Source: Dyella jiangningensis
GTDB taxonomy: Bacteria; Pseudomonadota; Gammaproteobacteria; Xanthomonadales; Rhodanobacteraceae
Length of the DNA stretch: 64,000 nucleotides
Direction: 5' to 3'
Assembly (NCBI RefSeq): GCF_003264855.1
Contig: NZ_NFZS01000004.1
Span: forward strand, 868,001-932,000
This document shows, piece by piece, positions 28,633 through 45,388 of the stretch. Under the pieces are notes generated by a model. The model was given only the letters and a program-made list of their open reading frames with translations, had not been told where the DNA came from and did no database searches. Numbering within the stretch: the stretch's first letter is position 1; the number at the start of each line of letters is the position of its first letter. The position numbers and the translations under genes were made by a program.

Positions 28633-30291
28633 GTGCCCAGCCAGGTGTCCAACACCGTCCAGCCCGCGTACACCAGCAACCGCCCCGCTCCCGAGGCGGC
28701 CCGCCACGAGCTGCTGTTCCTCAATTGTTTCCGCCTGGCGCAGGCGCTGGTCTATATCGGCCTGGCGCTGAGCCCCAACGCCCTGGGCTGGCCCAAGCTC
28801 ACCGACGTGGGGCTGGCGCGCGGCATGGCGGTGCTGTTCCTGCTGTTTGCCCTGGGCATGCTCTCGCTCACCCGCCGCTCGACCCCGTGGATACGGTGGA
28901 CGGTATCGGGCGCCTTGATCATCGACATCATCGCGGCGGTGCTGGCCATCGCCACCATGCACGATGCCCGCATCGGCATCGCCATGATGCTGGCGGTGAA
29001 CCTGGCCGCCGGCGCACTGATCCTGCCGCTGCGCCTGTCCTGCTTCTTCGCTGCCGTGGCCACGCTGGGCGTGCTGGGGCATTCGGTGTTTGAGATCCAG
29101 CATGGCGACACCGGCATGGACCGGGAACTGCTGGAATCCAGCCTGTTCGGCCTGGCCTACTTCGCCATCACGGTGCTCTGCTACGTATTGAGCCGGCAGA
29201 TCCGTGCCAGCGAGGCGTTGGCCGAGCAGCGCGGCGTCGACCTGGCCAACCTGGCGCAGGTCAACGAACTGATCATCCGCCGCATGAAGACCGGCGTACT
29301 GCTGGTGGACGACGCCAATCGCATCCACCAGATCAACGAGTCGGCCTGGATGCTGCTGGGCAACCCCACCGCCGACCAGCGCGACCTCGGCCGCGTGGCG
29401 CCGGAGCTGTCGAGGCGCCTCTACCACTGGATGACCTCGGGCAAGCTGGACGAGTCGGCCACCCAGCTCGCCGACGGCGTGCCCGAGGTGGTGCCGCGCT
29501 TCAGCCGATTGGCGCCGAACGACGATTCGCACGTGCTGATCTTCCTCGACGACACCTCGCTGGTGTCGCGACGCGCGGAAGAGCTGACGCTCAGTTCATT
29601 GGGCCGCCTGTCGGCCTCGATCGCGCACGAGATCCGCAATCCGCTGGCGGCGATCCGCTATTCCGCGCAGCTGCTGGCCGAGTCGCACGACCTGCCGCCG
29701 ACCGACCAGCGCATGGTGGAGATCATCAACAACCATTGCGTGCGCCTCAACGAGATCATCGAGAACATCCTGCAGCTGTCGCGGCGCGAGCGCTCGCGCC
29801 CGGAAACGCTGGACCTCGGCATGTGGGCCAACCAGTTCGTCGAGGAATACCGCCAGGGCAACGACCTCGGCGAGGATTCGCTGCGCGTGATCCAGGCCAG
29901 CACGCCGGTCGCCGCCGTGGCCGATCCGCAGCAGTTGCAGCAGGTGGTGTGGAACCTGGTGCAGAACGCACTGCGCTATGGACGCCTGCCCGGCGAGCCG
30001 GCGCGCGTGATGGTGGTGGCGCGGCATGGCGAACATGGCGTGCCGATACTGGAAGTGATCGACCGCGGCCCGGGCATCGCGCCCAAGGTGGCGGCACAGA
30101 TCTTCGAGCCGTTCTACACCACCCACGAATACGGCACGGGCCTGGGCCTGTATCTCGCGCGCCAGATGAGCGAGGCGAACCAGGCGTCGCTGGAGTACGT
30201 GCGTGTGGCCGGTGGCGGCAGCTGCTTCCGACTGGTGCTTACGCCGGCACGGATGGGGCGCACGACGGGGGACGCGGCGGCGGCGGGTTGA
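28633..30291 (+). CDS. pilS: PilS-type sensor histidine kinase (type IV pilus regulation)
   Basis: A 552-residue membrane kinase. Six hydrophobic segments occupy about residues 30-190, followed by a PAS-like region ([28 protein letters not shown]), the phospho-acceptor block [20 protein letters not shown] near 335, and the ATP-binding block with [18 protein letters not shown] and [12 protein letters not shown]. PilS phosphorylates PilR, which activates pilA with sigma-54. The apparent start is GTG at 28633 with a weak ribosome site, so the start is less certain. Its usual partner pilR lies 15 kb downstream, beyond a sugar locus. Confidence 0.9.
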
Positions 30292-30476: not shown

Positions 30477-31493
30477 TCAGGTCTCGCGGACGATCAGCTC
30501 CACCGGCAGCACCTCGGAGGGCACGGCCTTGTCGCCGATCATGGAAAGCACCTTGCGCGCGAGCAGGGTGCCGCCTTCCTGCCAGTCCTGTCGCACGGAG
30601 CTGAGCGGCGGCAGGAAGCTGGCTGCCAGCGGCATGTCGTCGTAACCCACCACCGACACGTCGCGAGGCACGCTGCGACCCAGCTCGTTGAGCGCGCGGA
30701 TCGCGCCCATCGCCAGCAGGTCGCTGCAGGCGAACACCGCATCGAACGGCACCTGCCGCTCGGCCAGCGAGTACATCGCGTCCATGCCCGAGGTGAGGGT
30801 GAATTCGTCGCGCCGGATCAGCAGCGGCTTCACGCCATGCGCGGCGAGCGCGTCGACGAAACCGTTGAGGCGATCGAAGATCTCCGGATGGTTGGGGTTG
30901 CCCACGAACACCGGATTGCGCCGGCCCAGCGCGATGAAGTGATCCGCCACCACGCTGCCGCCCTGGCGGTTATTGCTGCCCACCACCACGTGCTCGTCGC
31001 CTTCGCCCGGCGCGCCCCACACCACCATCGGCAGGCCCAGCTTGTCGAAGCGACGCACCGCGTCCTGGCGAGAGCCCTGGCCCAGCAGGATCAGGCCATC
31101 CGCCGCTTGCACCGCGGCAGCCGTCGCACCCTGGCGGGTGGTCAGCAGCACGCTGTAGCCATGCGCGGTCAGTTCCTGGGAAATGCCGCCGAGCAGGATC
31201 AGCGGGTACGGGTCGAGCATGGTGCGGTCGTGCGAGGGCTTCATTTCCACGATCACGGCCACCGTGTGGCTACGCCGCAAACGCAGATTGCGCGCACTCA
31301 CATTCAGCTTGTAACCCAGCTTCTGGGCAAGGGCCTGCAGGCGTTCACGGGTTTCGCGATTGACCAGCGGGCTGTCGCTCAAGGCCCGGGAAACGGTGAT
31401 CTTCGATACACCGGCCACCCTGGCCAGGTCGGCCATGGTCAAGCTGGCAGGAAGCGTGGCGACACCCTCGTGTTTCTTATGGTTACGACTCAA
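30477..31493 (-). CDS. LacI-family transcriptional regulator of the sugar locus
   Basis: A LacI/GalR-type regulator of about 338 residues. The helix-turn-helix TMADLARVAGVSKITVSRALSDSP and the hinge RLQALAQKLGYKLNVSARNLRLRRS are followed by a periplasmic-binding-protein-like effector domain with GLILLGQGS, VGSNNRQGG and PRDVSVVGYDDMPLA. No ATG suits the N-terminus: the in-frame ATG at 31436 would cut into the first helix, so I favour TTG at 31493 (TTG at 31523 is also possible). It is divergent from the GH65 fusion gene, and the shared spacer holds operator-like palindromes. It probably represses the locus until a sugar such as a trehalose product binds. Confidence 0.88.
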   Translation of the reverse strand: MSRNHKKHEGVATLPASLTMADLARVAGVSKITVSRALSDSPLVNRETRERLQALAQKLGYKLNVSARNLRLRRSHTVAVIVEMKPSHDRTMLDPYPLILLGGISQELTAHGYSVLLTTRQGATAAAVQAADGLILLGQGSRQDAVRRFDKLGLPMVVWGAPGEGDEHVVVGSNNRQGGSVVADHFIALGRRNPVFVGNPNHPEIFDRLNGFVDALAAHGVKPLLIRRDEFTLTSGMDAMYSLAERQVPFDAVFACSDLLAMGAIRALNELGRSVPRDVSVVGYDDMPLAASFLPPLSSVRQDWQEGGTLLARKVLSMIGDKAVPSEVLPVELIVRET

Positions 31494-31667
31494 GACCTGG
31501 CCCCAATGTCTTGTGAATGACAACGCAGCATCCGCGTCGTCGCCGACCGTGGCAGCGGCAAGTGTCCCGGTTTGTGGCCGATGCGTCCAACCTTTCCCCT
31601 GAGGCGGCTTTCACGGAACGCTGCGCCTGTCTTGCCGCGCCCTTGGCACCGGCTCATGCATTGGGAA

Positions 31668-31681
31668 TGATATCGATATCA
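31668..31681. promoter_or_regulatory. candidate LacI-family operator 1
   Basis: TGATATCGATATCA is a perfect 14-base palindrome with a central CG, the symmetry expected for a LacI-family operator. It shares the ATCGAT core with the larger inverted repeat 19 bases downstream. Confidence 0.6.
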
Positions 31682-31699
31682 GGTGAAATCATGCTGCGA

Positions 31700-31745
31700 T
31701 ACAGCAATTGTTATCGATACCTTGATATCGATAACAATTGCTGTA
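31700..31745. promoter_or_regulatory. 19-bp perfect inverted repeat, double operator candidate
   Basis: TACAGCAATTGTTATCGAT (31700-31718) is repeated exactly in reverse complement at 31727-31745, with 8 bases between. Each arm contains an ATCGAT core flanked by TTGTT/AACAA, so the element may be two operators arranged as mirror images, or a single large site. It lies 84 bases before the GH65 fusion start. The arms could also form a hairpin in RNA, though no T-tract follows. Confidence 0.65.
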
Positions 31746-31829
31746 AGCTGCCGCCCACTTCAAGAGCAGGGTCATCCGTACACAGACGGCCTGACCCGTA
31801 AAAGCCGACAACGTGCCCGGGGAGAGTGT

Positions 31830-34800
31830 GTGGATCACCATGAAACGGCGTCGGTCATGCCGGCTGCGTGCAGCCTGCCCTGCGACCCCTGGCTATTGAT
31901 CCGCCGCCAATCGAACCCCGCCGCGTTCGCCCAAGACGAAAGCCTGTTTGCCCTCTCGAACGGCAGCCTGGGCGTGCGTGGTGGCCTCGAAGAGGATGAC
32001 AGCCCGAGCCAGGGCTGTTTCCTCGCCGGGGCCTGGGAACGTGCGCCGATCGAATACCACGAGCGCTTCCCCGGTTTTGCCGCACATACCGATACCCGGG
32101 TGCCGGTGACGGACGGCACGCGCATCCACCTGCGCCTGGGCGATACGCCGGTGCGACTGGGCGAAGGCGAATGGCTCGATTTCGAGCGTGCCCTCGACCT
32201 TCGCTCCGGCTGCTACCGACGCCACCTGCGTTGGCGGTCACCGGAAGGCGCCACGCTGGAGATCGATGCCGAGCGCATCGTCAGCCTGGACGCCCCCGCC
32301 CTGCTCGCCATCCGCTATCGCGTGCGCTCGGTCGACTACCACGGCCCGGTCACGCTCGAATCCTCCCTCAGCACGGCCCGCGACGCCGTGGAACAGGGTG
32401 ACGACCCGCGCATCGGCACCCGGCTCGACGGCGGCTTTTCCACCTGCGATGCGCGCGCCGAGGAAGACCATGCCTATGTGCTGCAGCAGACCGCGCACAG
32501 CGGCATTCGCGTCGCCTGCATGCAGCGCCATGCCTATGACAGCAACCAGCTCGGATTCCGCCTCGCCAACCTCGCGCCGCATGGCGTGATGCAGGTCTAT
32601 GAGGGCGAGCTGGTGCCCGGTGGGTCGGTCGTACTCGAAAAGTACGTGTCCTACGCCTGGAGCGCGCCGCACGGTGACGACGGCGATACCACGCTGCTCG
32701 ATCGCGCCGACGCCAGCCTTTCGCAGGCGCGGGAGAGCGGCTACGACACGCTGCTGGCGCGCCAGTCCGCGATGTTCGATGCCTTGTGGCGCAACGCCGA
32801 CCTGGCCGTCGACGGCGACCCGCGCACCGAGCAGGCGCTGCGCTTCAACCTCTTCCATGTCTTCCAGTCCAGCAGTCGCGACGGCCACAGCAGCACCGCC
32901 GCCAAGGGCCTCACCGGCGAAGGCTACGAAGGCCATTATTTCTGGGATGCCGAGGCGTTCATGCTGCCGGCGATGGTCACCCTCGCGCCGGAACTCGCGC
33001 GCGGCATGCTTACCTATCGCTACCGCACGCTCGAACGCGCACGCCTCCATGCGCGCGAACTCAACCACGCGCGCGGCGCGCTCTATGCGTGGCGCACCAT
33101 CAGCGGCGACGAGTGCTCGGCCTACTTCCCCAGTGGCTCGGCGCAGTACCACATCAATGCTGCTGTCGCCTGGGCGATCCGCCAGTACGTGGACGTGAGC
33201 GGCGATCTGGGTTTCCTGCGCGATCACGGCGCGGAGATCCTGTTCGAGACGGCGCGCATCTGGCTGGACATCGGTCACTTCAGTACGCGGCGCAATGGCG
33301 CCTTCTGTATCCATGGCGTGACCGGCCCGGACGAATACACCGCGCTGGTGGACAACAACCACTACACCAACCGCATGGCGCAGCGTCATCTGCGCGATGC
33401 CGCGCAGGTCGCGCACTGGCTGGCGGAATACGACCCGCGCTTCTTCGCCGAACTCTCGCGCCACATCGGTCTCGAATCATTCGAGGTGATGCAATGGCTG
33501 CGCGCGGCGGATGCGATGTACCTGGCCGAGGACGCCGAGCTCGGCATCTTCCCGCAGGACGACACCTTCCTCGACAAGCCGCGCATGCCCATGCGCGCGC
33601 ATGGCGACGCCAAGCGCCCGCTGCTGCTGGAGCTGCATCCGCTGACCATCTACCGCCACCAGGTGTGCAAGCAGGCGGACACGCTGCTGTCGCTGATGCT
33701 GGCCGGCGACGGCGTGTCGCGCGGGGCGAAGCGCCGCAACTTCGATTACTACGAAGGCGTCACCGCGCACGACTCGACGCTCTCGGCGTCGACCTTCAGC
33801 GTGATCGCCGCGGAAGTGGGCGAAGCGGACAAGGCCTGGCGCTATTTCCAGGACACCTTGCGCGTGGACCTGGACGACCTTCACGGCAACGCCGCGCACG
33901 GCGTGCACATGGCCGCGATGGCCGGCAGCTGGCTGGCGCTGTGCTGGGGCTATGGCGGCGTGCGCATCCACCACGGCCAGCTTTCACTCGCCCCGCGACT
34001 GCCGGACGCATGGCATGGCTACCGCTTTGGCTTGCAGTGGCGCGGCTCGCACCTGCGCGTGGAGGTCGGCCAGACCGGCGTGCGTTATTCGCTGACCCGC
34101 GGCGATGAAGTCAGCTTCCATCACGAAGGTGAGCTGCTGCAGCTTCGCCGAGGGGAATCGCTGTCGTTGCCGTATCGTTTCGCCGAGGAGCACCCACCCT
34201 TGCGTGCGGTGATCTTCGACCTCGATGGTGTGATTGCCGACACCGCCGTCGTGCATCGCTCAGCGTGGGAAAAGCTTGCGCAGGAAATCGACGCACCGTT
34301 CGATGAAGTGCTGGCCGAACGCATGAAGGGCGTGGATCGCCGCGGTTCGTTGGAGATCCTGCTCGAACGTGCGCCGCGCGCCTACACCGAAGCCGAGAAG
34401 GACGAACTCGGCGAACGCAAGAACCGCTATTACCGCGAGCAGATCGGCAGCTTCGGCCCCGGCAACCTGCTGCCGGGAGCGCGCCACGCCGTCGAGGCGA
34501 CGCGCAACGCCGGACTGCGTGTGGGGCTCGCCTCGGCGAGTCGCAACGCGCCGCTGCTGCTCGAACGGCTCGGCATCGCCGACCTGTTCGACTACATCGT
34601 GGATGCCTCGACGATCGAGCGTTCCAAGCCGGACCCTGAAATCTTTTTGGCCGCCGCCGCCGGGCTTGGTGTGGCGCCGGCCGCTTGCCTGGGCGTGGAA
34701 GACGCCGCCGCAGGCATTGCCAGCATCCGTGCTGCGGGCATGGTCGCCGTAGGTGTAGGCCACCGCGAGGCCCTGGGGGAGGCAGATGTCGTGCTGCCGG

Positions 34801-34889
34801 GCCTGACCGCGTTCCGCATCGGAGAGTTCGTCGAAGACCAAGACCGCGCAACGGCGGAGTGTGCCGAAGCGTCGCATATCAACACGTAA
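31830..34889 (+). CDS. GH65 disaccharide phosphorylase fused to beta-phosphoglucomutase
   Basis: A 1019-residue two-enzyme protein. Residues 1 to about 785 are a GH65 phosphorylase: HGVTGPDEYTALVDNNHYTN holds the catalytic acid (about Glu502), VCKQADTLLSLML follows, and TAHDSTLSAS near 645 matches the phosphate-binding HDSSLS motif of phosphorylases, which hydrolases lack. Residues 791-1010 are a HAD beta-phosphoglucomutase opening AVIFDLDGVIADT, with a later SKPDPEIFLAAA. The pair would split an alpha-disaccharide to beta-glucose-1-phosphate plus glucose and convert the former to glucose-6-phosphate. Trehalose is the favoured substrate from context; maltose, kojibiose and nigerose are alternatives. 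No signal peptide. The GTG at 31830 has GGGGAG 5 bases upstream; ATG at 31857 lacks one. Confidence 0.9.
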   Translation: MDHHETASVMPAACSLPCDPWLLIRRQSNPAAFAQDESLFALSNGSLGVRGGLEEDDSPSQGCFLAGAWERAPIEYHERFPGFAAHTDTRVPVTDGTRIHLRLGDTPVRLGEGEWLDFERALDLRSGCYRRHLRWRSPEGATLEIDAERIVSLDAPALLAIRYRVRSVDYHGPVTLESSLSTARDAVEQGDDPRIGTRLDGGFSTCDARAEEDHAYVLQQTAHSGIRVACMQRHAYDSNQLGFRLANLAPHGVMQVYEGELVPGGSVVLEKYVSYAWSAPHGDDGDTTLLDRADASLSQARESGYDTLLARQSAMFDALWRNADLAVDGDPRTEQALRFNLFHVFQSSSRDGHSSTAAKGLTGEGYEGHYFWDAEAFMLPAMVTLAPELARGMLTYRYRTLERARLHARELNHARGALYAWRTISGDECSAYFPSGSAQYHINAAVAWAIRQYVDVSGDLGFLRDHGAEILFETARIWLDIGHFSTRRNGAFCIHGVTGPDEYTALVDNNHYTNRMAQRHLRDAAQVAHWLAEYDPRFFAELSRHIGLESFEVMQWLRAADAMYLAEDAELGIFPQDDTFLDKPRMPMRAHGDAKRPLLLELHPLTIYRHQVCKQADTLLSLMLAGDGVSRGAKRRNFDYYEGVTAHDSTLSASTFSVIAAEVGEADKAWRYFQDTLRVDLDDLHGNAAHGVHMAAMAGSWLALCWGYGGVRIHHGQLSLAPRLPDAWHGYRFGLQWRGSHLRVEVGQTGVRYSLTRGDEVSFHHEGELLQLRRGESLSLPYRFAEEHPPLRAVIFDLDGVIADTAVVHRSAWEKLAQEIDAPFDEVLAERMKGVDRRGSLEILLERAPRAYTEAEKDELGERKNRYYREQIGSFGPGNLLPGARHAVEATRNAGLRVGLASASRNAPLLLERLGIADLFDYIVDASTIERSKPDPEIFLAAAAGLGVAPAACLGVEDAAAGIASIRAAGMVAVGVGHREALGEADVVLPGLTAFRIGEFVEDQDRATAECAEASHINT

Positions 34890-34920
34890 AGTGGCCCGAT
34901 TTGGGCGGGGAGGCACGACC

Positions 34921-37449
34921 ATGTACACGCAAGGCATCACCCGACAGTTACTCGCAGCCGCGATCGTTACCGCACTCGCGGTAGGCGCAACGCACGCTCA
35001 GGACGCAGCACAGCCGTCGCAGAACCAGGGACCGGCACCGGCCGCGCCCGCCGATCAGAAGGGCGCCAAGACGCTCGACCAGGTGGTGGTCACCGGTACG
35101 TCCGCAGCCGGCGGCCTGAAGAAGATCGACGCCAGCTATTCGGTGGTCAGCGTCAGCGCCGAGGAAATCAAGAAGGCCAACCCCAAGAGCACCGCCGACC
35201 TGCTGAAGGTGTCGCCGGGCATGTGGCCGGAATCCACCGGTGGCCAGACCGGTGCGAACATCGAGATCGCCGGCTTCCCGGGCGGCGGTGATGCGCCGTT
35301 CTTCACCACGCAGATGATGGGTTCGCCGCTGTATGGCATGCCCACCCTGTCGTTCTTTGAAACCACCTCGATCTTCCGCCTCGACGACACCGTGGAGCGC
35401 GCGGAAATCCTGCAGGGTGGTCCGTCCGTGATGTACGGCGACGGCCAGATGGGCGCCACCGCCAACTTCATCCTCAAGCAGGGCACCGACGTGCCGAGCG
35501 GTAGCGTCGGCGTCACCTACGGCAACGAAGGCCTGTGGCGCACCGATGCCTTCCTGGGTTTCCCGCTGGGCAACAAGTGGTACGGCAGCGTCGGCGGCTT
35601 CTACCGCGACTCGGACGGCGTGCGCAGCCCGGGCTATCCGGCGGACAAGGGCGGCCAGTTCACCGCCACGATCTCGCACGACATGGATAACGGCTCGCTG
35701 GTGTTCTATGCGCGCCAGCTCAACGACCGCAACCAGTTCATCACGCCGATCCCGCTGATCCAGAGCGGCACGGACAACTTCAGCGCCTATCCGGGCTTCG
35801 ATCCGCTCACCGACACGTACAACAGCAAGTACATCCAGCACGTGAACCTGCCGGGTTACCCCGGCGGCGGCACCAGCGCCAACCTGGCCAACGGCCGCGG
35901 CGCGAAGTTCAGCTTCTTCGGCATGAACTTCGATTACGACCTGGGCGATGGCTGGAACCTCTCGGACAAGTTCCTGATCGACGGCGGCAACGCCGACACC
36001 AATGCGTTGTTCTCCGGCACCAATCCAGCCAGCCTCAATGACGAGCTGTACAACCTCGGCACCGATTTCGGCGGCTTCGCATTGCCGCCCGGCTCGGCGA
36101 AGGCCACCTACGTCAACGGTGGCGGCACGGTCGACCCGAACCAGAGCGTGATCCACCAGGGCTGGTGGTTCATCCACAAGCACCTGAAGAACGTCAACAA
36201 CGATTTCCATATCAGCAAGGAAATCTTCGAAGGCAATACGGTCACCGCCGGCCTGTACCTGGCCCACTACACCGACAACGACGAGTGGAACCTGGGCAAC
36301 CAGATGCTGATGACCAACACGCCGAACGCGCGGCCGATCCAGGTCAGCTATGTCGGCAAGGACGGCCTGACCCATCAGCTCACCGATTACCAGGGCCTGC
36401 TCGACTACGGCGCCTACAACATCACCGAGCACGGCCAGTCGACCAACAAGGCGTTCTACCTCACCGACTCGTGGCGCATCGACAAGTGGCTGTTCGATGT
36501 GGGCGCGCGCGTGGAGAACCAGGACTCCACCCTGCACGTGTGCAACCTCACCAATCAGAACCTGGACGGCAACCCGCTGACCGATTACGACAACGCGGTA
36601 CCGGTCTGCAACGGCACCTTCGCCACCACCAAATACGACAAGACCCACACCTCGTGGACGTTCGGCGTGAACTACGAGATCACCAGCCAGATGTCGGTGT
36701 ATTTCCGCGCCAACAAGGGTGCTCACTTCGGTGACTTCGACAACGCGCTGCGCGGCAACACCACGGGCAACACGCCCCCGCTGCAGAAGATCCAGAACTT
36801 CGAAGGCGGCTTCAAGTTCCAGAACAAGTACGTCTACGCGGACATCAGCGCCTATCATCGCCAGTTCAACGGCCTGCCCTACCAGCCAACCAATGGCGAG
36901 GGCGTGCCCGTCGGCGGACCGCTGCTGTACGGCTCGGATTCGAAGGGCGTGAACCTGGTCGGCGCCGTCACGCCGATCGACCACCTGAAGCTGGAGCTGG
37001 TGGCCAACTACCTCGACGGCCACTACTCGCACTACTCGGCCTGTATCCCGTACGTGAACCAGGTATCCGGCAACGGCTGTGCCTTCATCGATGGCGTGCA
37101 GCTGCAGCGCCAGCCGAAGCACCGCTACATGTTCACCCCGAGCTACGACATTCCGTTCTCGTGGGGTGACGTGCTGGCCTTCGTGACCTACACCTACGTG
37201 GGACCGCACACGCAGGACCAGTCTGGCCTGCAGCAGTTGGGCACCTACCACACGCTCGACTTCGGTATCGTGGCCAACGTCGAGAAGAACTGGGAGCTGC
37301 GCCTGCAGGGTACAAACATCACCAACGAGCTGGGCCTCACCGAGAGCAATTCCCGCATCTTCGGTTCGGCAGCAGGTTCCAATGGCGTGATCCTGGCCCG
37401 ACCGCTGGAAGGTCGCGAAGTGAATATGTCAGTGAAGTACAAGTTCTAA
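34921..37449 (+). CDS. TonB-dependent outer membrane receptor of the sugar locus
   Basis: An 842-residue receptor. A signal peptide (MYTQGITRQLLAAAIVTALAVGATHA) is followed by a proline-rich linker, the TonB box-like KTLDQVVVTGTS, a plug domain (STADLLKVSPGMWPES through GPSVMYGDGQMGATANFILKQG), and a barrel ending in the aromatic residue of MSVKYKF. It probably imports the locus's substrate oligosaccharide or glycolipid head group. The start has GGGGAGG 7 bases upstream and lies 31 bases after the GH65 fusion. A strong terminator follows, so the receptor may be made in excess of the downstream enzymes. Confidence 0.9.
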   Translation: MYTQGITRQLLAAAIVTALAVGATHAQDAAQPSQNQGPAPAAPADQKGAKTLDQVVVTGTSAAGGLKKIDASYSVVSVSAEEIKKANPKSTADLLKVSPGMWPESTGGQTGANIEIAGFPGGGDAPFFTTQMMGSPLYGMPTLSFFETTSIFRLDDTVERAEILQGGPSVMYGDGQMGATANFILKQGTDVPSGSVGVTYGNEGLWRTDAFLGFPLGNKWYGSVGGFYRDSDGVRSPGYPADKGGQFTATISHDMDNGSLVFYARQLNDRNQFITPIPLIQSGTDNFSAYPGFDPLTDTYNSKYIQHVNLPGYPGGGTSANLANGRGAKFSFFGMNFDYDLGDGWNLSDKFLIDGGNADTNALFSGTNPASLNDELYNLGTDFGGFALPPGSAKATYVNGGGTVDPNQSVIHQGWWFIHKHLKNVNNDFHISKEIFEGNTVTAGLYLAHYTDNDEWNLGNQMLMTNTPNARPIQVSYVGKDGLTHQLTDYQGLLDYGAYNITEHGQSTNKAFYLTDSWRIDKWLFDVGARVENQDSTLHVCNLTNQNLDGNPLTDYDNAVPVCNGTFATTKYDKTHTSWTFGVNYEITSQMSVYFRANKGAHFGDFDNALRGNTTGNTPPLQKIQNFEGGFKFQNKYVYADISAYHRQFNGLPYQPTNGEGVPVGGPLLYGSDSKGVNLVGAVTPIDHLKLELVANYLDGHYSHYSACIPYVNQVSGNGCAFIDGVQLQRQPKHRYMFTPSYDIPFSWGDVLAFVTYTYVGPHTQDQSGLQQLGTYHTLDFGIVANVEKNWELRLQGTNITNELGLTESNSRIFGSAAGSNGVILARPLEGREVNMSVKYKF

Positions 37450-37468
37450 GAGAGCACTTCCCTCGACT

Positions 37469-37510
37469 GTTCCGGGCCGCCGGCACCGCGGCGGCCCGGA
37501 ACCTTTTTTT
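37469..37510 (+). terminator. strong terminator between the receptor and MFS genes
   Basis: GTTCCGGGCCGCCG (37469-37482) pairs perfectly with CGGCGGCCCGGAAC (37489-37502) and is followed by seven T. It lies inside the gene series, 19 bases after the receptor stop, and suggests partial readthrough or a separate downstream promoter. Confidence 0.92.
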
Positions 37511-37536
37511 CAAAAGCGTCGTTGCAAGGGGTGGGG

Positions 37537-38799
37537 ATGAACCGGTACCGCATGATCGCCGCGCTGGCGACGATTTACATGGTGTTCGCGATCCTGCTGA
37601 ACAGCGTGGGCACCGTCATCCTGCAATCCATCCATACCTTCGGCATCGACAAGCCGCAGGCGAGTCTGCTCGAACTGTTCAAGGATCTACCGATCGCCGT
37701 CACCTCGTTCCTTGTGGCGTCCTTTCTGCCCAAGCTGGGTTATCGCCGCGCCATGATGCTTGCGCTGGTGATCGTGGGCTGCGCATGTGCGCTGATGCCG
37801 CTGTACCCCAGTTTCCACACCACCGAATTGCTGTTCACCTGCGTCGGCGTGTCGTTCGCGCTGGCGAAGGTATCCGTGTATTCGTCGATCGGCCTGCTGA
37901 CCCGCGACAAGGCGGAGCACGGCCGGCTCACCAATACCATCGAAGGCCTGTTCATGCTGGGCGTACTGGCCAGTGGCTGGTTGTTCAGCGCCTTCATCGA
38001 CCATGCGCGTCCCGAGAACCCGTCGTGGTTCAACGTGTACTGGGTGCTGTCGGCTATGTGCTTCGGCACCGTCGTGCTGCTGTGGGGCGCAGCGCTCGAC
38101 GAATCGGCTGCACACGGCGGCATGGCTTCGTCGATGGGCCAGGCATTGCGTCAGATGTATCGCCTGCTGATGCGCACGCTGGTCTATGTGTTCCTGCTGT
38201 CGGCCTTCCTCTACGTGCTGATCGAGCAGAGCTTCAGCACCTGGCTGCCGACCTTCAACAACGAGATCCTCAAGCTGCCAAATGCGATGAGCATCCAGAT
38301 GGCGAGCATCTTGGCCGGGGCCACCGCGCTCGGTCGCATCGTCGCCGGCCAGCTGCTACGCCGCATGCCGTGGCACATGCTGCTCAACCTCTGCGTGGTC
38401 GGCATGGGCACGCTGATCGTGCTCGTGCTGCCGCTCGCGCGGGAGGCCACGGTCACCGCCGATACCGGCTGGTTCAACGCGCCGCTTGCCGCCTACCTTA
38501 TCCCGCTGATCGGCCTGCTGATGGCGCCGATCTATCCGGTGATCAATTCGGTGGCGCTCAGCTCGCTGCCCAAGCCGGCGCATGCGGCGATGACCGGGCT
38601 CATCGTGATCTTCTCCGCGCTCGGCGGCACGCTGGGGTCGCGCATCACGGCGCTGGTGTTCTCGAGTTTCGGCGGCATCCACGCGTTCTACTTCTCGCTG
38701 CTGCCGATGACGCTGATCCTGGTGACGCTGTTCTTCTTCAAGCGCGAAACCGACCGCGCCGCCGTACCGGCGCCCTTGGCGCCCGAGGGCGCTGCGTGA
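37537..38799 (+). CDS. MFS sugar transporter
   Basis: A 420-residue polytopic protein with about twelve hydrophobic segments, a member of the major facilitator superfamily. The first segment is IAALATIYMVFAILLNSVGTVI, the loop after segment 2 reads LPKLGYRRAMMLAL, and the cytoplasmic end is basic. It probably carries the free sugar or disaccharide across the inner membrane to the cytoplasmic GH65 phosphorylase. The ATG at 37537 has AAGGGG 5-6 bases upstream. It overlaps the sulfatase gene (GTGA at 38796-38799), the first of a series of coupled junctions. The substrate cannot be read from the sequence. Confidence 0.85.
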   Translation: MNRYRMIAALATIYMVFAILLNSVGTVILQSIHTFGIDKPQASLLELFKDLPIAVTSFLVASFLPKLGYRRAMMLALVIVGCACALMPLYPSFHTTELLFTCVGVSFALAKVSVYSSIGLLTRDKAEHGRLTNTIEGLFMLGVLASGWLFSAFIDHARPENPSWFNVYWVLSAMCFGTVVLLWGAALDESAAHGGMASSMGQALRQMYRLLMRTLVYVFLLSAFLYVLIEQSFSTWLPTFNNEILKLPNAMSIQMASILAGATALGRIVAGQLLRRMPWHMLLNLCVVGMGTLIVLVLPLAREATVTADTGWFNAPLAAYLIPLIGLLMAPIYPVINSVALSSLPKPAHAAMTGLIVIFSALGGTLGSRITALVFSSFGGIHAFYFSLLPMTLILVTLFFFKRETDRAAVPAPLAPEGAA

Positions 38800-40247
38800 A
38801 CTTCACGCGCCGCCAGTTCCTCGCTTCGGGCGTGGCGGCGGCGGGCGCCATGCTGGCCGGTGATGCCTTCGCTTCGCCATGGCGTGACGGCCAGAGCGGC
38901 AAGCGCCGCAACGTGCTGCTGATCGTCGCCGACGATCATGGCTACGATCTCTCCTGCATCGGCACCGCCGTGCGCACGCCCGCGCTGGATCGCCTCGCCA
39001 GCGAAGGCACGCTGTTCACCGACGCCTATGCCTCGGTGTCTTCCTGCAGCTCCAGCCGCGCCACGCTGTACACCGGCCTCTATTCGCACACCAACGGCAT
39101 GTACGGTCTCGCGCACGACGTGCACAACTTCTCGCTGCTGGAAGACGTGAAGACCTTGCCGTGGATGCTCAAGCAGCACGGCTACGGCACGGCACTGGTA
39201 GGCAAGCTGCACGTGAAACCCGAGGCGCAGCTGGCCTACGACGCGTGGCTGTTGCCCGAACGGGCCGGCAACCGCGACGTGGCGGCCATGGGCCACGCCG
39301 CGGGCCAGTGGATCCGCGCGCAGGGCGACAAACCGTTCTTCCTCACCATGGCCTACAGCGACCCGCATCGCGCCGGCGACGCCTCGCAGTTCGGCAACAC
39401 GCGCGACTGGCCGGAAGTACCGCGCGTGCGCTATCACCCCGACGAGGTGACGATTCCATCGCACCTGCCCGACCTTCCCGGTGTGCGTGAAGACCTTGCG
39501 CAGTACTACGAAGCGGTAAGTCGCATGGACAGCGGCGTGGACATCCTGCTGCGCGAACTCGCCGCCAGCGGACATGCCGACGATACGCTGGTGATCTATC
39601 TGTCCGACAACGGCCGTCCCTTTCCCGGCGCGAAGGACAACCTCTACCGCGAAGGCATCCATCTGCCGCTGATCGTGCGTGCGCCCGGCGCCAGGCATCG
39701 CGGCCTTCGCAATCACGCGATGGTCAGCTGGATCGACATCACGCCGACGATTCTCGACTGGGCCGGCGTGGCGCCGCCTTCGGAATACCGCTACCTGCCT
39801 TTGCCCGGACGCTCGCTGCTGCCGATCCTGGAACAGCAGAAGCCAAGCGGCTGGGATGAAGTGTTCGCCACCCACTCGTTCCACGAGATCGACCAGTACT
39901 ACCCCACGCGTTCCCTGCGCACGCGACGCTACAGCTATTTCATGAACCTGCAGCCCAGCCTGCGCGTACCGATCGCCAGCGACGTGGCGCTATCGCCATC
40001 ATGGAAGGCGATCACCACGACGCCCGGCGCGCGATTGGGCAAGCGCACGCTCGATGCGTTCGAACATCGTCCTGCCGAGGAACTCTACGACCTCGACGCC
40101 GATCCCGACGAGGTCGTGAACGTGGCCGGCGATGCCGCGCACGCGAAAGTGCTGGACGACCTGCGCCGGCAACTCGCGCACTGGCGCACGACCACGCGGG
40201 ATCCGTGGATGGCCGGCGTCACCAATCCCTTCGGCCCGACTCGCTGA
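38796..40247 (+). CDS. Tat-exported sulfatase, SGSH (sulfamidase)-like, CSSSR active site
   Basis: A 483-residue type I sulfatase. The twin-arginine signal TRRQFLASGVAAAGAML (residues 4-20) predicts folded export to the periplasm. NVLLIVADDHGYD begins the fold. The formylglycine site is Cys84 in SSCSSSRATLYTGLYSHTNG; the usual proline two residues after the cysteine is serine. The next block, GMYGLAHDVHNFSLLEDVKTLP, later LVIYLSDNGRPFPGAKDNLY, and WRTTTRDPWM near the end, resemble human N-sulfoglucosamine sulfohydrolase as I recall it. No other glycosaminoglycan genes are near. Here it may remove sulfate from a decorated trehalose or another sugar. The GTG at 38796 has GAGGG 6 bases upstream and couples to the MFS gene. 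Confidence 0.88.
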   Translation: MNFTRRQFLASGVAAAGAMLAGDAFASPWRDGQSGKRRNVLLIVADDHGYDLSCIGTAVRTPALDRLASEGTLFTDAYASVSSCSSSRATLYTGLYSHTNGMYGLAHDVHNFSLLEDVKTLPWMLKQHGYGTALVGKLHVKPEAQLAYDAWLLPERAGNRDVAAMGHAAGQWIRAQGDKPFFLTMAYSDPHRAGDASQFGNTRDWPEVPRVRYHPDEVTIPSHLPDLPGVREDLAQYYEAVSRMDSGVDILLRELAASGHADDTLVIYLSDNGRPFPGAKDNLYREGIHLPLIVRAPGARHRGLRNHAMVSWIDITPTILDWAGVAPPSEYRYLPLPGRSLLPILEQQKPSGWDEVFATHSFHEIDQYYPTRSLRTRRYSYFMNLQPSLRVPIASDVALSPSWKAITTTPGARLGKRTLDAFEHRPAEELYDLDADPDEVVNVAGDAAHAKVLDDLRRQLAHWRTTTRDPWMAGVTNPFGPTR

Positions 40248-40281
40248 GGGCCCTCCGGACAACCTCTTCATGGAATCCGCC

Positions 40282-42588
40282 ATGCGCAAGCCGCCCGTCC
40301 TCGCGATCGCCTTCTTCGGCGCCCTGTTGATGGCCGGCGGATGCCGCGCCACCGACGCGAGCTTCCTGCTCACCGCGACGGAGAAGGATCTTGCCAACTA
40401 CTTCCCCGGGCAGCTCGGCAACGGTTTCTTTTCCACGCTCACCTCGCCGCGCGGTACCGAGGGCAGCCTGTCCTACATGATCAGCTTCATGGATTACGCG
40501 AAGGGCGATGTGTCGCGTCCTGCCGCGATTCCGGGCTGGACCGGCATCGACTACAGCACCGGTCCGTCGCATGCCGGCCAGTTCTGGCTCAACCAGGTGG
40601 ACATGGACGGTGCGCATTTTCGCGACTACCGCCAGGTGCTGGACATGCACGAGGGCACGCTCACCACGCGCTACCGCTATCTCGACGCGCACAAGGCCAC
40701 GGACGTGCAGGTGGTGTCGCTGGTCAGCCAGGCGTCGCCGCACCTGGCCGCCAGCCAGCTCACCATCACGCCGGATTTCGATGGCGAGGTGCAGCTCTCC
40801 TTCGCGCTCGACCTGTGGGCGCCGCACCAGCCCCGCTTTGCCCTTGGCGAGATCGACGGGCCGCAGATGCAGGAGGCGGTGGCCGCTCACAACCTGAAAC
40901 TGAAAGCGGTGCCGCCGGACGTGCCCGATCGCGCGCCACTCTGGTACCACGGCGATACGCACGTGCTTGCCGCCGATGGCGACACCAAGGCGCTGACGCT
41001 GTGGCTGGACGGCAAGGCCGAACAGGGCCATGCCATGGCGGAAGCCGTGGCCATCGCGTTGCCGCCGGGCATGCAGCCACGCGAGGTGAAGCTGCACCAC
41101 AGCGATTACAAGCTCTCGCTGGAACTGCGCGTGGCGGTGCAGAAGGGCAAGACCTACGCGTTCACCAAATTCGTCGCGGCCTCGCGCGAACGGTGGGGCG
41201 GCGATGCGAAGCAGGATCTCGCGCTGGCCGTCAACGCGCGCAAGGCCGGCTTCGACGCCTTGCTCAAGCAACACCGCGACGCGTGGCACGCACTGTGGCA
41301 ATCGGACATCGTGATCGATGGCGATCCCAAGTCGCAGCAGATCGTCCACTCCGACCTCTACTACCTGCTCTCCAATGCCGCACCTGATACGGCGTGGCCG
41401 GTGGGCGCCTGTGGCATGACGCCGGGCTATACCGCGCACGTGTTCTGGGACAGCGACACCTGGGTCTTCCCCGCGCTGCTGCTGCTGCATCCCGACCGGG
41501 CGAAATCGCTGGTGATGTTCCGCAGCGAAACGCTGCCCGCAGCGGAGCAGCGCGCGCGGGAACGCGGGCTGCGCGGTGCGATGTATCCGTGGGAAGCCGA
41601 CCCCGACAACGGCAGCTCGCAGACGCCGCATTTCGCCTGGGTGCTCGACGAGCGCGAGATCCATGTCAACGCCGACGTCGCCATCGCGCAATGGCAGTAC
41701 TACCTCGCCACGCAGGACCGCGACTGGCTCAGGCAGCATGGCTGGCCGGTGATCCGCGCCGTCGCCGATTTCTGGGCGAGCCGCGCCACCTACGTGGCGG
41801 CGACGCGGCATTACGAGATCCATCACGTCACGTCGGTGGACGAGGATTACGCCGACGTGCCGAACGACACGTTCACCAACGCGTCCGCGCAGAAGGCGCT
41901 GCGCATCGCCACGCAGGCGGCGGCGCTGATGGGCGAAACACCGGATCCCCAATGGGCCAAGGTGGCTGACGGACTCGTGCTGCCGTTCGACGCGAAGGCC
42001 GGCCATCACCTCGACTTCGATGCCTCGGTGCCGCACGACATCGATTCGTGGGGCGGCAGCTCCCTGCCGATGCTGAGCAATCCCTCGCTGGATCTCGCCA
42101 TGGACGTGCAGGTGCGCCGGCGCAACTACGACTACTCGATCGCACCGATCACCCACGCCAGCCGCGATCCCAACAGCATGGGCCTGATGCCGCTGTCGAT
42201 CGCCGCCGCCACGGCCGGCGACGCCGCGGCCGCCAGCGACTGGTACACGCGCAACATCACCGCCAACGTGCTGAAGCCGCCGTTCAACGTGCGCACCGAA
42301 ACGGCCACCAACAACACCGGCTATTTCATGACCGCCAGTGGCGGCCTGCTGCAGAACATCCTGTACGGCTTCACCGGTCTGCGCATCCGTGACGACGGCC
42401 TGGTGACGGCGTATGCACCGATGCTGCCCGATCATTGGCGCGCCATGACGCTCAAGAACATCAGGTTTCGCGGGCAACAGCTCGACATCACGGTGGAGCG
42501 CGACGCGCAGGGCCAGCCGCGACTGATCCGACACGCGGCCGACACACCGACTTCCCATCCTCACGCCACGACCAGGGAGCAGACATGA
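40282..42588 (+). CDS. secreted GH65-family hydrolase (acid trehalase-like), probable lipoprotein
   Basis: A 768-residue exported protein. MRKPPVLAIAFFGALLMAGGC is a signal peptide with a possible lipobox, which would tether it to the outer membrane. The catalytic (alpha/alpha)6 barrel contains GYTAHVFWDSDTWVFPALLLLHP, characteristic of the acid trehalase / protein-glucosylgalactosylhydroxylysine glucosidase branch, and HHVTSVDEDYADVPNDTFTN, where the glutamate of VDED takes the catalytic-acid place. The phosphate-binding HDSSLS motif is absent, so it should hydrolyse rather than phosphorolyse. The start at 40282 gives a basic n-region; ATG at 40270 is also possible. Its stop overlaps the GH37 start. 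Confidence 0.82.
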   Translation: MRKPPVLAIAFFGALLMAGGCRATDASFLLTATEKDLANYFPGQLGNGFFSTLTSPRGTEGSLSYMISFMDYAKGDVSRPAAIPGWTGIDYSTGPSHAGQFWLNQVDMDGAHFRDYRQVLDMHEGTLTTRYRYLDAHKATDVQVVSLVSQASPHLAASQLTITPDFDGEVQLSFALDLWAPHQPRFALGEIDGPQMQEAVAAHNLKLKAVPPDVPDRAPLWYHGDTHVLAADGDTKALTLWLDGKAEQGHAMAEAVAIALPPGMQPREVKLHHSDYKLSLELRVAVQKGKTYAFTKFVAASRERWGGDAKQDLALAVNARKAGFDALLKQHRDAWHALWQSDIVIDGDPKSQQIVHSDLYYLLSNAAPDTAWPVGACGMTPGYTAHVFWDSDTWVFPALLLLHPDRAKSLVMFRSETLPAAEQRARERGLRGAMYPWEADPDNGSSQTPHFAWVLDEREIHVNADVAIAQWQYYLATQDRDWLRQHGWPVIRAVADFWASRATYVAATRHYEIHHVTSVDEDYADVPNDTFTNASAQKALRIATQAAALMGETPDPQWAKVADGLVLPFDAKAGHHLDFDASVPHDIDSWGGSSLPMLSNPSLDLAMDVQVRRRNYDYSIAPITHASRDPNSMGLMPLSIAAATAGDAAAASDWYTRNITANVLKPPFNVRTETATNNTGYFMTASGGLLQNILYGFTGLRIRDDGLVTAYAPMLPDHWRAMTLKNIRFRGQQLDITVERDAQGQPRLIRHAADTPTSHPHATTREQT

Positions 42589-44318
42589 CCAGCCCACACC
42601 GCTCGTCCCCTCGCCCAGGCACGTCGTCGCTGCAGCGCTCCATCGGGCGTCGCCTCAGCGTGCTCGCCTTGACCTGCGCGTTCGCCGCGACGTCGATGGC
42701 GGCCACGCCCGATCCGGCCAAGACGCGTGCCTACATCGACCATGCCTGGACCACGCTCACGCGCTCGCAGGAAGACTGCGCCGCGCTCGTCGACACCAAG
42801 GTGACCAGCCATCCGGTGCTTTACATGCCGGCCGACCTGCCGGTGCCCCCGCAGGTGGCCGACGTGGGCAAGCGCTGCGGCGTGGACGTGCGCCCGCTGC
42901 CGCACAAGGTGCAACAACTGGGTGACATCGACACCAACGCGCTGCCCCAGCAAGGCCTGCTCTACCTGCCGCACCCGTACGTGGTACCGGGTGGCTTCTT
43001 CAACGAGATGTACGGCTGGGACAGCTACTTCATCCTGCTGGGCCTGGTCGCCGACCATCGCATCGAGATGGCGAAGAACATGGTCGACAACGCCTTGTTC
43101 GAAGTGGAGCACTACGGCGGCGTGCTCAACGCCAACCGCACCTACTACCTCAGCCGCTCGCAGCCGCCGTTCCTCACCCGGATGATGGTCGCGGTACTCG
43201 ACGACCCCAAGGGCTTTCCGGATGCCGATGCGCGCCTGCAGTGGCTGACGCGCGCCTATCCGCTGGCGGTGCGCAACTACGAGATATGGACGCGCCCCGA
43301 ACACCGCGCCGGCGATACGGGCCTCGCGCGCTATTACGACCTGGGCAACGGCCCGGTGCTGGAAGCGAAGGACAGCGAGTACTACAAGGGCGTGATCCGC
43401 TGGCTGCGTGCGCATCCGTCGCAGGACCCGGGCTATCTGCTCAAGGCGTCCGAACATCCTGACGATGCCGAAGCGGCCAAACTCAAGGACAGCAGCTGCG
43501 ACGTGCGCGCCTCGAAGGTGTGCGAAGGCGCGTGGGTGGACGGCTATCGCCTCACGGCCGACTACTACCATGGCGATCGCGCCATGCGCGAATCGGGCTT
43601 CGACACCAACGCGCACTTCGGACCGTTCGGCGGCTCGACCCATCACTACGCCGACGTCAGCCTCAACAGCCTGCTCTATCGCTACGAACTCGACCTGCAC
43701 GACCTCGCCATGCAGCTGGGCAAGGCCGGCGATGCCGAGCGTTGGGCGCATGCGGCCGAGACGCGACGGCAGGCGATGGACCGCTATCTGTGGCGCCCGG
43801 ATGCGGGCATGTACCGCGACTACGACTTCGTCGCCGGCAAGCCGTCGCCCTATCCCTACGTCACCACGTTCTATCCGCTGTGGGCGGGCACGGCCACGGC
43901 CCAGCAGGCCGCATCGGTGCGCGGCAAGCTCTCGATCTTCGAGCGCAAGGGTGGCCTGAGCATGGACGACCGTCCGGCCGGCGTGCAGTGGGGCGCGCCG
44001 TTCGGCTGGGCACCGACCAACTGGCTGGCGGTAGCGGGGCTCGATGCCTATGGCTTCCACGACGACGCCAGGCGCATCGCCGGCAAGTTCATGGCGACGG
44101 TGGACCAGGGCCTCGCCGACGACGGCACCATCCGCGAGAAATACAACATGGAGCTGGGCAACGCCGACGTGAAAGTGAGCGCCGGCTACAGCGAGAACGT
44201 GGTCGGTTTCGGCTGGACCAACGGTGTGTACCTGATGATGCAGCAGGTGGTCAGCGGCACGGCCAGGAAAACCGCCACCACGCCTGCCGAAACGGCCACG
44301 CCGGAGAAGCTGCCATGA
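42585..44318 (+). CDS. exported GH37 (trehalase-family) protein, divergent
   Basis: A 577-residue protein with an N-terminal signal (SIGRRLSVLALTCAFAATSMA). The two trehalase signatures are present in altered form: GGFFNEMYGWDSYFILLGL near residue 140 and VQWGAPFGWAPTNW near 468. The catalytic aspartate region reads RESGFDTNAHFG and the C-terminal block GYSENVVGFGWTNGVYL. GH37 is known only for alpha,alpha-trehalase activity. The differences from classic TreA (for example ESGFDTN against ESGWDFS, and a cysteine pair in SSCDVRASKVCEGA) may reflect a modified trehalose substrate. The ATG at 42585 overlaps the GH65 stop (ATGA) and has GGGAG 5 bases upstream. Confidence 0.82.
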   Translation: MTSPHRSSPRPGTSSLQRSIGRRLSVLALTCAFAATSMAATPDPAKTRAYIDHAWTTLTRSQEDCAALVDTKVTSHPVLYMPADLPVPPQVADVGKRCGVDVRPLPHKVQQLGDIDTNALPQQGLLYLPHPYVVPGGFFNEMYGWDSYFILLGLVADHRIEMAKNMVDNALFEVEHYGGVLNANRTYYLSRSQPPFLTRMMVAVLDDPKGFPDADARLQWLTRAYPLAVRNYEIWTRPEHRAGDTGLARYYDLGNGPVLEAKDSEYYKGVIRWLRAHPSQDPGYLLKASEHPDDAEAAKLKDSSCDVRASKVCEGAWVDGYRLTADYYHGDRAMRESGFDTNAHFGPFGGSTHHYADVSLNSLLYRYELDLHDLAMQLGKAGDAERWAHAAETRRQAMDRYLWRPDAGMYRDYDFVAGKPSPYPYVTTFYPLWAGTATAQQAASVRGKLSIFERKGGLSMDDRPAGVQWGAPFGWAPTNWLAVAGLDAYGFHDDARRIAGKFMATVDQGLADDGTIREKYNMELGNADVKVSAGYSENVVGFGWTNGVYLMMQQVVSGTARKTATTPAETATPEKLP

Positions 44319-45388
44319 GGCGCTGCCGTTTCCTGCCGTCCCTGCTGGCGCTGGGCCTCACCCTGCCCTTGGGCGTGCTGGCGCAGCAGGCCGAGGTGCC
44401 GACTGTCAGCGCCGATGGCGGCGTCCACGCGGGGGCCATCTCGGTGCCCTACTCCGCGTTCGCCTCGCCCGAAGCGCGGGCATTCTTCCCGAAGATGCTG
44501 GCGGCCGGCGGCAAGGCGCCGCCCCTCGCCGGCCCGATCGAGCAAAGCCGCGCGTTCTACGACCGCATGAACAGCGACCGCGCCGCCCGCATGGAAAAGC
44601 TCTATGCCGTGAAGACGCACAAGGAAACCATCGGCGGCGTGGGTGCCGACGTGGTGGAACCGGCCGATGGCATCGCCCCGCAGAACCGCGACCGCGTGCT
44701 GATCAACCTGCACGGCGGCGCCTTCCTGTGGGGTGCGCACAGCGGCGCCCTGGTCGAGGCGATCCCGATCGCCAGCGTGGGCCACATCAAGGTGGTCGGC
44801 GTGGACTACCGCCAGGGTCCCGAACACGTGTTCCCCGCCGCCAGCGAGGACGTGGAGGCGGTGTACCGGGCCCTGCTCAAGCAGTACAAGCCCGGCAACA
44901 TCGGCATCTACGGCTGCTCGGCCGGCGGTGTGCTGACCGGCGAGACCGTGGCCCGGCTGATCGATCACAAGCTGCCCGTACCCGGCGCCATCGGCACCTT
45001 CTGCGGCTCGCTGGTGAACATGGAAGGCGACTCGGTCTACGTGGCCCCGCTGCTGAACGGCCAACCGGTGCCCGACCATCCGCTGCGGCTGAACGACCTG
45101 CCCTACTTCAAGGGCGCCAGCGTCACCGACCCGATGGTGTTCCCGGGCCAGTCGCCGGCCCTGCTGGCCAAGTTCCCGCCCACCCTGCTGATCACCGGCA
45201 CCCGGGACATGGCCATGGGCTCGGTGATCCAGAGCCAGACCCTGCTCAGCCGGGCCGGCGTGGAAACCGAGTTGCACGTCTGGGACGGCATGTGGCACTC
45301 GTTCTTCTCCGACCCGGAGATCCCCGAATCCCGCGATGCCTACCGGGTCATCGTGACGTTCTTCGACCACCATCTGGGCAAAAAGTAA
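44315..45388 (+). CDS. exported alpha/beta-hydrolase esterase, HSL family
   Basis: A 357-residue hydrolase with a Sec signal peptide (MRRCRFLPSLLALGLTLPLGVLAQ). The oxyanion motif INLHGGAFLWG has its HGG at about residues 133-135, the nucleophile is Ser202 in GCSAGG, and the remaining triad members are probably in TRDMAMGS and DGMWHSFF. This is the hormone-sensitive lipase (family IV) pattern, common among carbohydrate acetyl and short-chain esterases. It overlaps the GH37 gene by ATGA and so is co-translated with it. In this operon it may remove acyl groups from the sugar before hydrolysis. It is the last gene before pilR. Confidence 0.85.
   Translation: MRRCRFLPSLLALGLTLPLGVLAQQAEVPTVSADGGVHAGAISVPYSAFASPEARAFFPKMLAAGGKAPPLAGPIEQSRAFYDRMNSDRAARMEKLYAVKTHKETIGGVGADVVEPADGIAPQNRDRVLINLHGGAFLWGAHSGALVEAIPIASVGHIKVVGVDYRQGPEHVFPAASEDVEAVYRALLKQYKPGNIGIYGCSAGGVLTGETVARLIDHKLPVPGAIGTFCGSLVNMEGDSVYVAPLLNGQPVPDHPLRLNDLPYFKGASVTDPMVFPGQSPALLAKFPPTLLITGTRDMAMGSVIQSQTLLSRAGVETELHVWDGMWHSFFSDPEIPESRDAYRVIVTFFDHHLGKK

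What the first reader, a model, noticed from the sequence alone, without database searches (positions are those of the whole stretch)
30477..45388. Candidate locus for using sulfated and/or acylated trehalose
Seen: LacI regulator, cytoplasmic GH65 phosphorylase-phosphoglucomutase, TonB receptor, MFS transporter, Tat sulfatase, exported GH65 hydrolase, exported GH37 enzyme and exported esterase, with 4-base overlaps at MFS/sulfatase, GH65/GH37 and GH37/esterase. Known: GH37 contains only trehalases, and GH65 includes trehalases and trehalose phosphorylases. Inference: the sulfatase and esterase strip a decorated trehalose (2-sulfotrehalose, acyltrehaloses or mycobacterial sulfolipid-like head groups) before or during cleavage. 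I know of no described utilisation locus with this set.
Basis: partly seen in the sequence, partly recalled or inferred. Interest (0 to 1): 0.85.

Follow-up and report, generated by a model that had tools for sequence, protein, structure and literature searches.

The report
Sulfatase added to trehalose-use locus
A soil bacterium carries a sugar-eating gene cluster built around an enzyme that probably splits trehalose, and an extra sulfate-removing enzyme has been slotted into it, which may let the cell feed on sulfated trehalose such as mycobacteria make.

Summary
In detail: LacI, GH65 phosphorylase-bPGM fusion, TonB receptor, MFS, Tat sulfatase, exported GH65 hydrolase, GH37 and esterase lie at 30477-45388 with three 4-base overlaps. 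The cluster sits between pilS and pilR. Without the sulfatase it is common: the phosphorylase is in 110 of 233 family genomes, the sulfatase in 13, each within about 7 kb of it. A near twin, L118, lacks only the sulfatase. The phosphorylase fits most of the published trehalose-phosphorylase motif. The sulfatase is closest to human N-sulfoglucosamine sulfatase, which acts at C2 of a terminal alpha-glucosamine, but has the O-sulfatase lysine for its Arg282. More distant relatives lie within 15 kb of trehalose-2-sulfotransferase (Stf0) in 111 of 135 genomes holding both. I read it as a trehalose/acyl-trehalose locus with an accessory 2-O-sulfatase. Against a fixed 'sulfated trehalose locus': the sulfatase comes and goes; the exported GH65 looks like an alpha-1,2-glucosidase; the GH37 has lost residues conserved in trehalases; no ordinary sulfatase-activating enzyme was found. 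All substrates are inferred.

The parts
30477..31523 (-). LacI-family regulator (true start probably inside this ORF)
   Evidence: PF00356, PF13377
31671..31741 (.). Three TATCGATA palindromes (31671, 31712, 31726), two of them inside a 16+16 bp inverted repeat GCAATTGTTATCGATA / TATCGATAACAATTGC (31704-31719, 31726-31741): candidate operators of the LacI regulator
   Evidence: 4 matches in the window against 0.07 expected; same 8-mer upstream of the phosphorylase in 22 of 25 loci examined, two of them Sphingomonadaceae (positions read)
31857..34889 (+). GH65 phosphorylase fused to beta-phosphoglucomutase (predicted trehalose phosphorylase; GTG at 31830 possible as start)
   Evidence: PF03632/03636/03633, TIGR01990 over cut-off; R392, I394, SAY, P585
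34921..37449 (+). TonB-dependent receptor
   Evidence: PF00593, PF07715
37537..38799 (+). MFS transporter
   Evidence: PF07690
38796..40247 (+). Tat-exported S1 sulfatase, SGSH-like, active-site motif CSSSR: accessory gene
40270..42588 (+). Exported GH65 hydrolase (acid and base Glu present; subsite +1 W-E as in alpha-1,2-glucosidases)
42585..44318 (+). Exported GH37-family hydrolase of a divergent subfamily (PGGFF, GPVLE, AGY)
   Evidence: PF01204
44315..45388 (+). Exported hormone-sensitive-lipase-type esterase, GCSAG subfamily
   Evidence: NF058650 523 bits, cut-off 410; PMGL2 closest solved
28633..30291 (+). Flank: PilS-like sensor kinase (named from sequence)
   Evidence: same flank in related loci
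45468..46868 (+). Flank: PilR-like sigma-54 response regulator (named from sequence)
   Evidence: same flank in related loci

Best explanation
A catabolic locus for trehalose and decorated trehaloses with an accessory sulfatase. The TonB receptor brings the glycoside into the periplasm. There the esterase (and the sulfatase, where present) removes acyl and C2-sulfate groups, and the exported GH65 and GH37 trim or cleave further alpha-glucosyl bonds. Freed trehalose is carried in by the MFS protein and split by the cytoplasmic trehalose phosphorylase into glucose and beta-glucose-1-phosphate, which the fused mutase turns into glucose-6-phosphate. The LacI protein controls the operon through TATCGATA palindromes. 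Shown by sequence: families, gene order, overlaps, motifs, conservation. Inferred: every substrate, the direction of transport, regulation. Graded: trehalose phosphorylase about 0.85; a trehalose or trehalose-derivative locus about 0.75; the sulfatase removes a C2-O-sulfate from an alpha-gluco sugar about 0.5; that sugar is trehalose-2-sulfate or an acylated form about 0.4.
Against: The actinobacterial Stf0-linked sulfatases are not sister to the window's: the window's clade joins human SGSH (88/84) and a Lentisphaeria copy, and the actinobacterial rows differ at SGSH Asp31 and Lys123, so the linkage supports the family, not the ortholog. The closest actinobacterial copy (Segniliparus, 66-68%) is broken in two and its genome has no Stf0. 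The receptor and MFS of L118, without sulfatase, are about 95% identical to the window's, so neither is specific to a sulfated substrate. Sulfatase presence is not clustered on the phosphorylase tree (7 changes; 118 of 500 shuffles as low). Two of 7 Sphingomonadaceae loci (L104, L107) show no GH37 or phosphorylase. The exported GH65 resembles alpha-1,2-glucosidases. In the window's genome no formylglycine-generating enzyme with its cysteine pair and no anaerobic maturase was found, and the motif is CSSSR instead of CxPxR. Phosphorylase positions 64 and 402 read E and A, not T and G, in uncertain columns of my alignment, and 416 falls in a gap.
Confidence: 0.55

Rival explanations
1. Ordinary trehalose locus plus an unrelated sulfate-scavenging sulfatase: the sulfatase takes sulfate from small esters or N-sulfoglucosamine and sits here only because the operon serves periplasmic feeding.
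For: The sulfatase comes and goes (at least 7 changes on a tree of 25 phosphorylases); in Segniliparus it lies within 3 kb of an NMT1-type binding protein and an ABC ATPase, in L104 beside another NMT1-type protein; SGSH itself is an N-sulfatase.
Against: Beside the phosphorylase in 13 of 13 genomes of the family; again with esterase and GH37 or phosphorylase in 5 of 7 Sphingomonadaceae loci; Lys instead of Arg282; 4-base overlap with MFS in the window.
Confidence: 0.3
2. The locus feeds on an alpha-1,2-glucosylated trehalose (such as selaginose, recalled) or a kojibiosyl glycan; the exported GH65 removes alpha-1,2-glucose, GH37 and the phosphorylase finish, and sulfate and acyl groups are side decorations.
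For: Exported GH65 closest to kojibiose hydrolase FjGH65A (273 bits) and PGGHG (194), both alpha-1,2 enzymes; P-W-E at subsite +1 in 15 of 15 copies aligned.
Against: The kojibiose-hydrolase model's cut-off is missed by far (372 of 800 bits); the third +1 residue (Thr407) has no counterpart in the alignments; the cytoplasmic enzyme is of trehalose type; no exported GH65 was seen in the 7 Sphingomonadaceae loci.
Confidence: 0.25
3. Glycosaminoglycan (heparan sulfate) use, with an N-sulfoglucosamine sulfohydrolase.
For: SGSH is the nearest solved relative.
Against: Arg282 to Lys; no lyase, GH88 or second sulfatase among the eight genes; trehalose-type phosphorylase. Heparin lyases elsewhere in the genome were not searched for.
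Confidence: 0.04

Closest known systems
Trehalose phosphorylase, GH65 (T. brockii, T. bispora; PMC8537180)
   Same: Loop-3 SAY, R392, I394, P585; coupled to beta-phosphoglucomutase
   Different: Fused to the mutase; sits in a TonB-receptor locus; positions 64 and 402 not matched and 416 gapped in my alignment
N-sulfoglucosamine sulfohydrolase SGSH, S1_8-type sulfatase (PMC4014121)
   Different: Arg282 is Lys as in O-sulfatases, Asp399 is Ala; CSSSR at the active site; Tat-exported
Sulfatases beside Stf0 in mycobacteria and kin (AtsG = Rv0296c, PMC4734655; orthology my inference)
   Same: SGSH-like, His368, Asp401, Lys282; physical link with trehalose-2-sulfotransferase
   Different: 36-41% identical in the best matches, separate clade, other residues at Asp31 and Lys123; substrate not given in the passages read
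Kojibiose hydrolases FjGH65A / MmGH (PMC8626586, PMC8537180)
   Same: GH65 with acid and base Glu and the W-E pair
   Different: Third +1 residue differs, far under the NCBIfam cut-off
GH37 trehalases (yeast neutral trehalase, E. coli TreA)
   Same: Catalytic Asp (RESG.D) and Glu (EKY) kept
   Different: Arg of PGGRF replaced in 17 of 17 copies examined; Glu of GGGEY replaced in the 16 in which the motif was caught

Membership tests
Trehalose phosphorylase (GH65) | GH65 three-domain architecture and coupling to beta-phosphoglucomutase | tested here: met
Trehalose phosphorylase (GH65) | Specificity motif TRIGPP at CsKP positions 64/392/394/402/416/585 and SAY in loop 3 | tested here: inconclusive
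   Window: R392, I394, P585 and SAY present; 64 (E) and 402 (A) do not match, 416 is gapped, in uncertain columns
Trehalose phosphorylase (GH65) | Phosphorolysis of trehalose | not testable with these tools
   needs enzyme assay
S1_8 / SGSH-type sulfatase | Sulfatase fold, metal ligands, formylglycine-binding Arg/Lys/His | tested here: met
N-sulfoglucosamine sulfohydrolase (SGSH) | Arg282 in place of the O-sulfatase Lys | tested here: not met
   Lys in the window and in the other bacterial rows
Formylglycine sulfatase | C-x-P/A-x-R motif | tested here: not met
   CSSSR in the window; six of the seven Sphingomonadaceae rows have Pro there
Formylglycine sulfatase | A known maturase in the genome | tested here: inconclusive
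   No FGE with Cys pair among 4 PF03781 stretches, no TIGR03942 match in the window's genome; an unknown maturase is not excluded
GH37 trehalase | Catalytic Asp and Glu | tested here: met
   RESG[FY]D and EKYN in 17 of 17
GH37 trehalase | Conserved Arg of PGGRF and Glu of GGGEY (E. coli numbers R152, E511 recalled) | tested here: not met
   PGGFF 16/17, PGGMF 1/17; AGY in 16 of 17, motif not caught in L127
Kojibiose hydrolase (GH65) | NCBIfam equivalog cut-off | tested here: not met
   372 bits of 800
GH65 hydrolase | General acid Glu and general base Glu | tested here: met
   15 of 15 aligned copies, by motif
GCSAG hormone-sensitive lipase | NCBIfam subfamily cut-off | tested here: met
   523 bits, cut-off 410

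The most novel reading that the evidence does not exclude
The first catabolic route for trehalose-2-sulfate and acylated sulfotrehaloses: an SGSH-fold enzyme turned 2-O-sulfatase (matured without a known formylglycine enzyme), a GH37 subfamily with a new specificity and an esterase strip and cut mycobacterial or archaeal sulfotrehalose compounds, and the related sulfatase beside Stf0 in mycobacteria does the same job at home.
Probability: 0.25. Interest if true: 0.8.

Novelty: new variant of a known kind. Interest (0 to 1): 0.55.

Why it matters
Sulfotrehalose is a major solute of some haloalkaliphilic archaea and the core of mycobacterial sulfatides (passage in PMC1224877). None of the titles and abstract beginnings that my paper searches listed (20 of 37, 3 of 3, 12 of 12, 3 of 3, 40 of 70) announces a route for its breakdown; I did not read those papers through, and subscription papers are mostly missing from the library. 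Natural pairs of near-identical loci with and without the sulfatase (window against L118) make the question testable in soil bacteria, and the sulfatase-Stf0 linkage gives a concrete substrate guess for a mycobacterial sulfatase whose substrate was not given in the passages I read. The GH37 subfamily is a candidate for a new GH37 activity.

Tried and rejected
Orthology of the window's sulfatase with the Stf0-linked actinobacterial sulfatases: not supported by the tree; only family-level support kept. A receptor specific for the sulfated compound: rejected, L118 has nearly the same receptor. Loss of the PRPES-type motif as a mark of altered GH37: dropped, because yeast neutral trehalase differs there too (PRPES recalled). 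FjGH65A residue numbers did not map onto the PDB chain piece as I had numbered it; I used motifs instead. Paper searches for essential trehalase arginines found nothing. The sulfatase model is of middling confidence (pLDDT 71, several loops under 50), so the fold match is used and no residue geometry. In one search the sulfatase-free loci were chosen by me, so the 7 changes hold for that sample only. The motif scan missed sulfatase motifs in the window genome's other PF00884 hits because some loci read on the wrong strand; one search shows CTAGR in one (L007). The 142 SGSH-like sulfatases were taken by E-value; only 14 were aligned. PMC13095810 (passages) added nothing that I used.
Full report
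OBSERVATION. The window (64-69% GC by 4-kb blocks) is part of a 4.76 Mb genome in 7 contigs; the most similar named loci are Dyella. The cluster lies between pilS (28633-30291) and pilR (45468-46868), named from sequence.

THE BASE LOCUS IS COMMON, THE SULFATASE IS NOT. In 233 genomes of the family, the phosphorylase is found in 110 (E 1e-100), the exported GH65 in 114 (E 1e-60) and the close sulfatase (75-100% identity) in 13, the window's included (63 genomes match at E 0.001, the other 50 by short or weak stretches). All 13 have the phosphorylase, 4.3-7.1 kb away by start coordinates (Fisher p 4e-5 for 13 of 110 against 0 of 123, relatedness not corrected). In the 13 sulfatase loci: phosphorylase, TBDR and MFS 13 of 13, exported GH65 13, LacI 12 (one cut off), esterase 10, GH37 7, at least one pil flank 10; order and strand vary. 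Of 12 further loci fetched, none with a sulfatase match, 11 have the phosphorylase and 10 reach pilR. L118 is the window's locus without the sulfatase; similarity stops at the MFS stop codon and resumes in the GH65 leader. On a tree of 25 phosphorylases (14 with sulfatase, 11 without, the latter chosen by me) presence needs at least 7 changes and is no more clustered than chance (118 of 500 shuffles as low). So the sulfatase is an accessory.

SECOND OCCURRENCE. In 397 genomes of the family of a Sphingomonas, 6 have a 57-60% sulfatase (17 match at E 1e-40); with L025 there are 7 loci. A TBDR is beside it in 7 of 7, esterase in 5, GH37 in 3, LacI and MFS in 3, phosphorylase plus separate mutase in 2 (L106, L108); L104 and L107 have neither GH37 nor phosphorylase in the 20 kb seen.

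PHOSPHORYLASE. De Beul et al. (PMC8537180; parts 1 and 2 of 7 of the text read) give six specificity positions, the motif TRIGPP for an enzyme that they show to make trehalose, and loop-3 SAY for the T. brockii trehalose phosphorylase. In 15 copies from two classes: R392 15, I394 14, P585 15; loop 3 SAY 8, SAH 5, SGH 1, SSY 1; positions 64 and 402 read E and mostly A in uncertain columns, 416 is gapped. I take it as a trehalose phosphorylase; the fused mutase fits the beta-glucose-1-phosphate product.

STF0 LINK. In 401 genomes of the family of Segniliparus (unnamed; taken to be Mycobacteriaceae), 142 have an SGSH-like sulfatase (E 1e-40) and 138 have Stf0 (PF09037, E 1e-20): 135 both, 7 sulfatase only, 3 Stf0 only, 256 neither; on one contig within 15 kb in 111 of 135, within 2 kb in 68; in 24 they are far apart or on different contigs. 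L111: sulfatase, Stf0, sulfurylase/APS kinase fusion; L112, the other such locus fetched, has no Stf0. That these are orthologs of AtsG (Rv0296c) is my inference from recalled gene order; the AtsG paper's passages leave its natural substrate open (PMC4734655). Their clade is not sister to the window's and two active-site residues differ, which limits the transfer.

EXPORTED GH65. Acid and base Glu and P-W-E at +1, as in FjGH65A and PGGHG, in 15 of 15 copies aligned (PMC8626586 passages); a second copy in L059 and fragments were not aligned. Two paralogous types occur. A hydrolase, perhaps alpha-1,2; not assigned to trehalose.

GH37. In 17 of 17 copies examined from the family's loci the catalytic Asp and Glu are kept, but PGGRF is PGGFF (16) or PGGMF (1) and the Glu of the GGGEY-type motif is replaced (AGY in 16; motif not caught in L127). 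The Sphingomonadaceae locus copies are canonical where the region is present. The window's genome has one GH37 over the Pfam cut-off. A distinct GH37 subfamily whose substrate is open.

REGULATION. Three TATCGATA palindromes lie upstream of the phosphorylase; 4 in the window against 0.07 expected; present upstream of the phosphorylase in 22 of 25 loci, absent as an exact 8-mer in L018, L124, L129 (L025, L059 and L126 left out for lack of that region).

MATURATION PUZZLE. The four PF03781 stretches of the window's genome read as an FGE-domain protein without the cysteine pair, a divergent one, and EgtB-like pieces; no TIGR03942 match. Of 20 sulfatase-bearing genomes searched, a cysteine pair was seen in 4 (G293, G330, G213, G234); weaker matches without a locus were not read.

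VERDICT. A real, conserved trehalose-type locus with an accessory SGSH-like sulfatase; sulfotrehalose use is the best single guess for the sulfatase but unproven.

Noticed in passing
window 28633-46868: The whole cluster is inserted between pilS and pilR; at least one pil flank is seen in 20 of 25 related loci of the family.
   Followed up: partly
L111 (9324-14312) and 111 of 135 genomes: SGSH-like sulfatase near the trehalose-2-sulfotransferase Stf0 (and PAPS synthesis in L111) in actinobacteria.
   Followed up: partly
L027 10001-11331: Segniliparus rugosus has a 66-68% identical sulfatase, in two pieces, near an ABC ATPase and an NMT1-type binding protein, and no Stf0 match: looks like horizontal transfer followed by decay.
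   Followed up: partly
L003 (G000:C1:2020369-2021190): A ~659-aa protein with an FGE-sulfatase domain but no catalytic cysteine pair; similar proteins were seen in genomes of the family with and without the sulfatase.
   Followed up: no
L018, L019, L020, L023, L124, L125, L126: TPR proteins with a C-terminal 2OG-Fe(II) oxygenase domain (PF13759; Pfam run on the L018 and L023 copies, the rest by similarity) sit inside or beside the locus; L018 and L020 also have a GH36-like gene.
   Followed up: no
window 7887-7894: A fourth TATCGATA site far from the locus; possible further target of the LacI regulator.
   Followed up: no
TBDR at 34921-37449 and relatives: The receptor is about 93-95% identical in some loci (L014, L015, L118, L121) and about 50% in others (L016, L017, L119) whose neighbouring genes are mostly 75-91% identical, as if swapped.
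   Followed up: no
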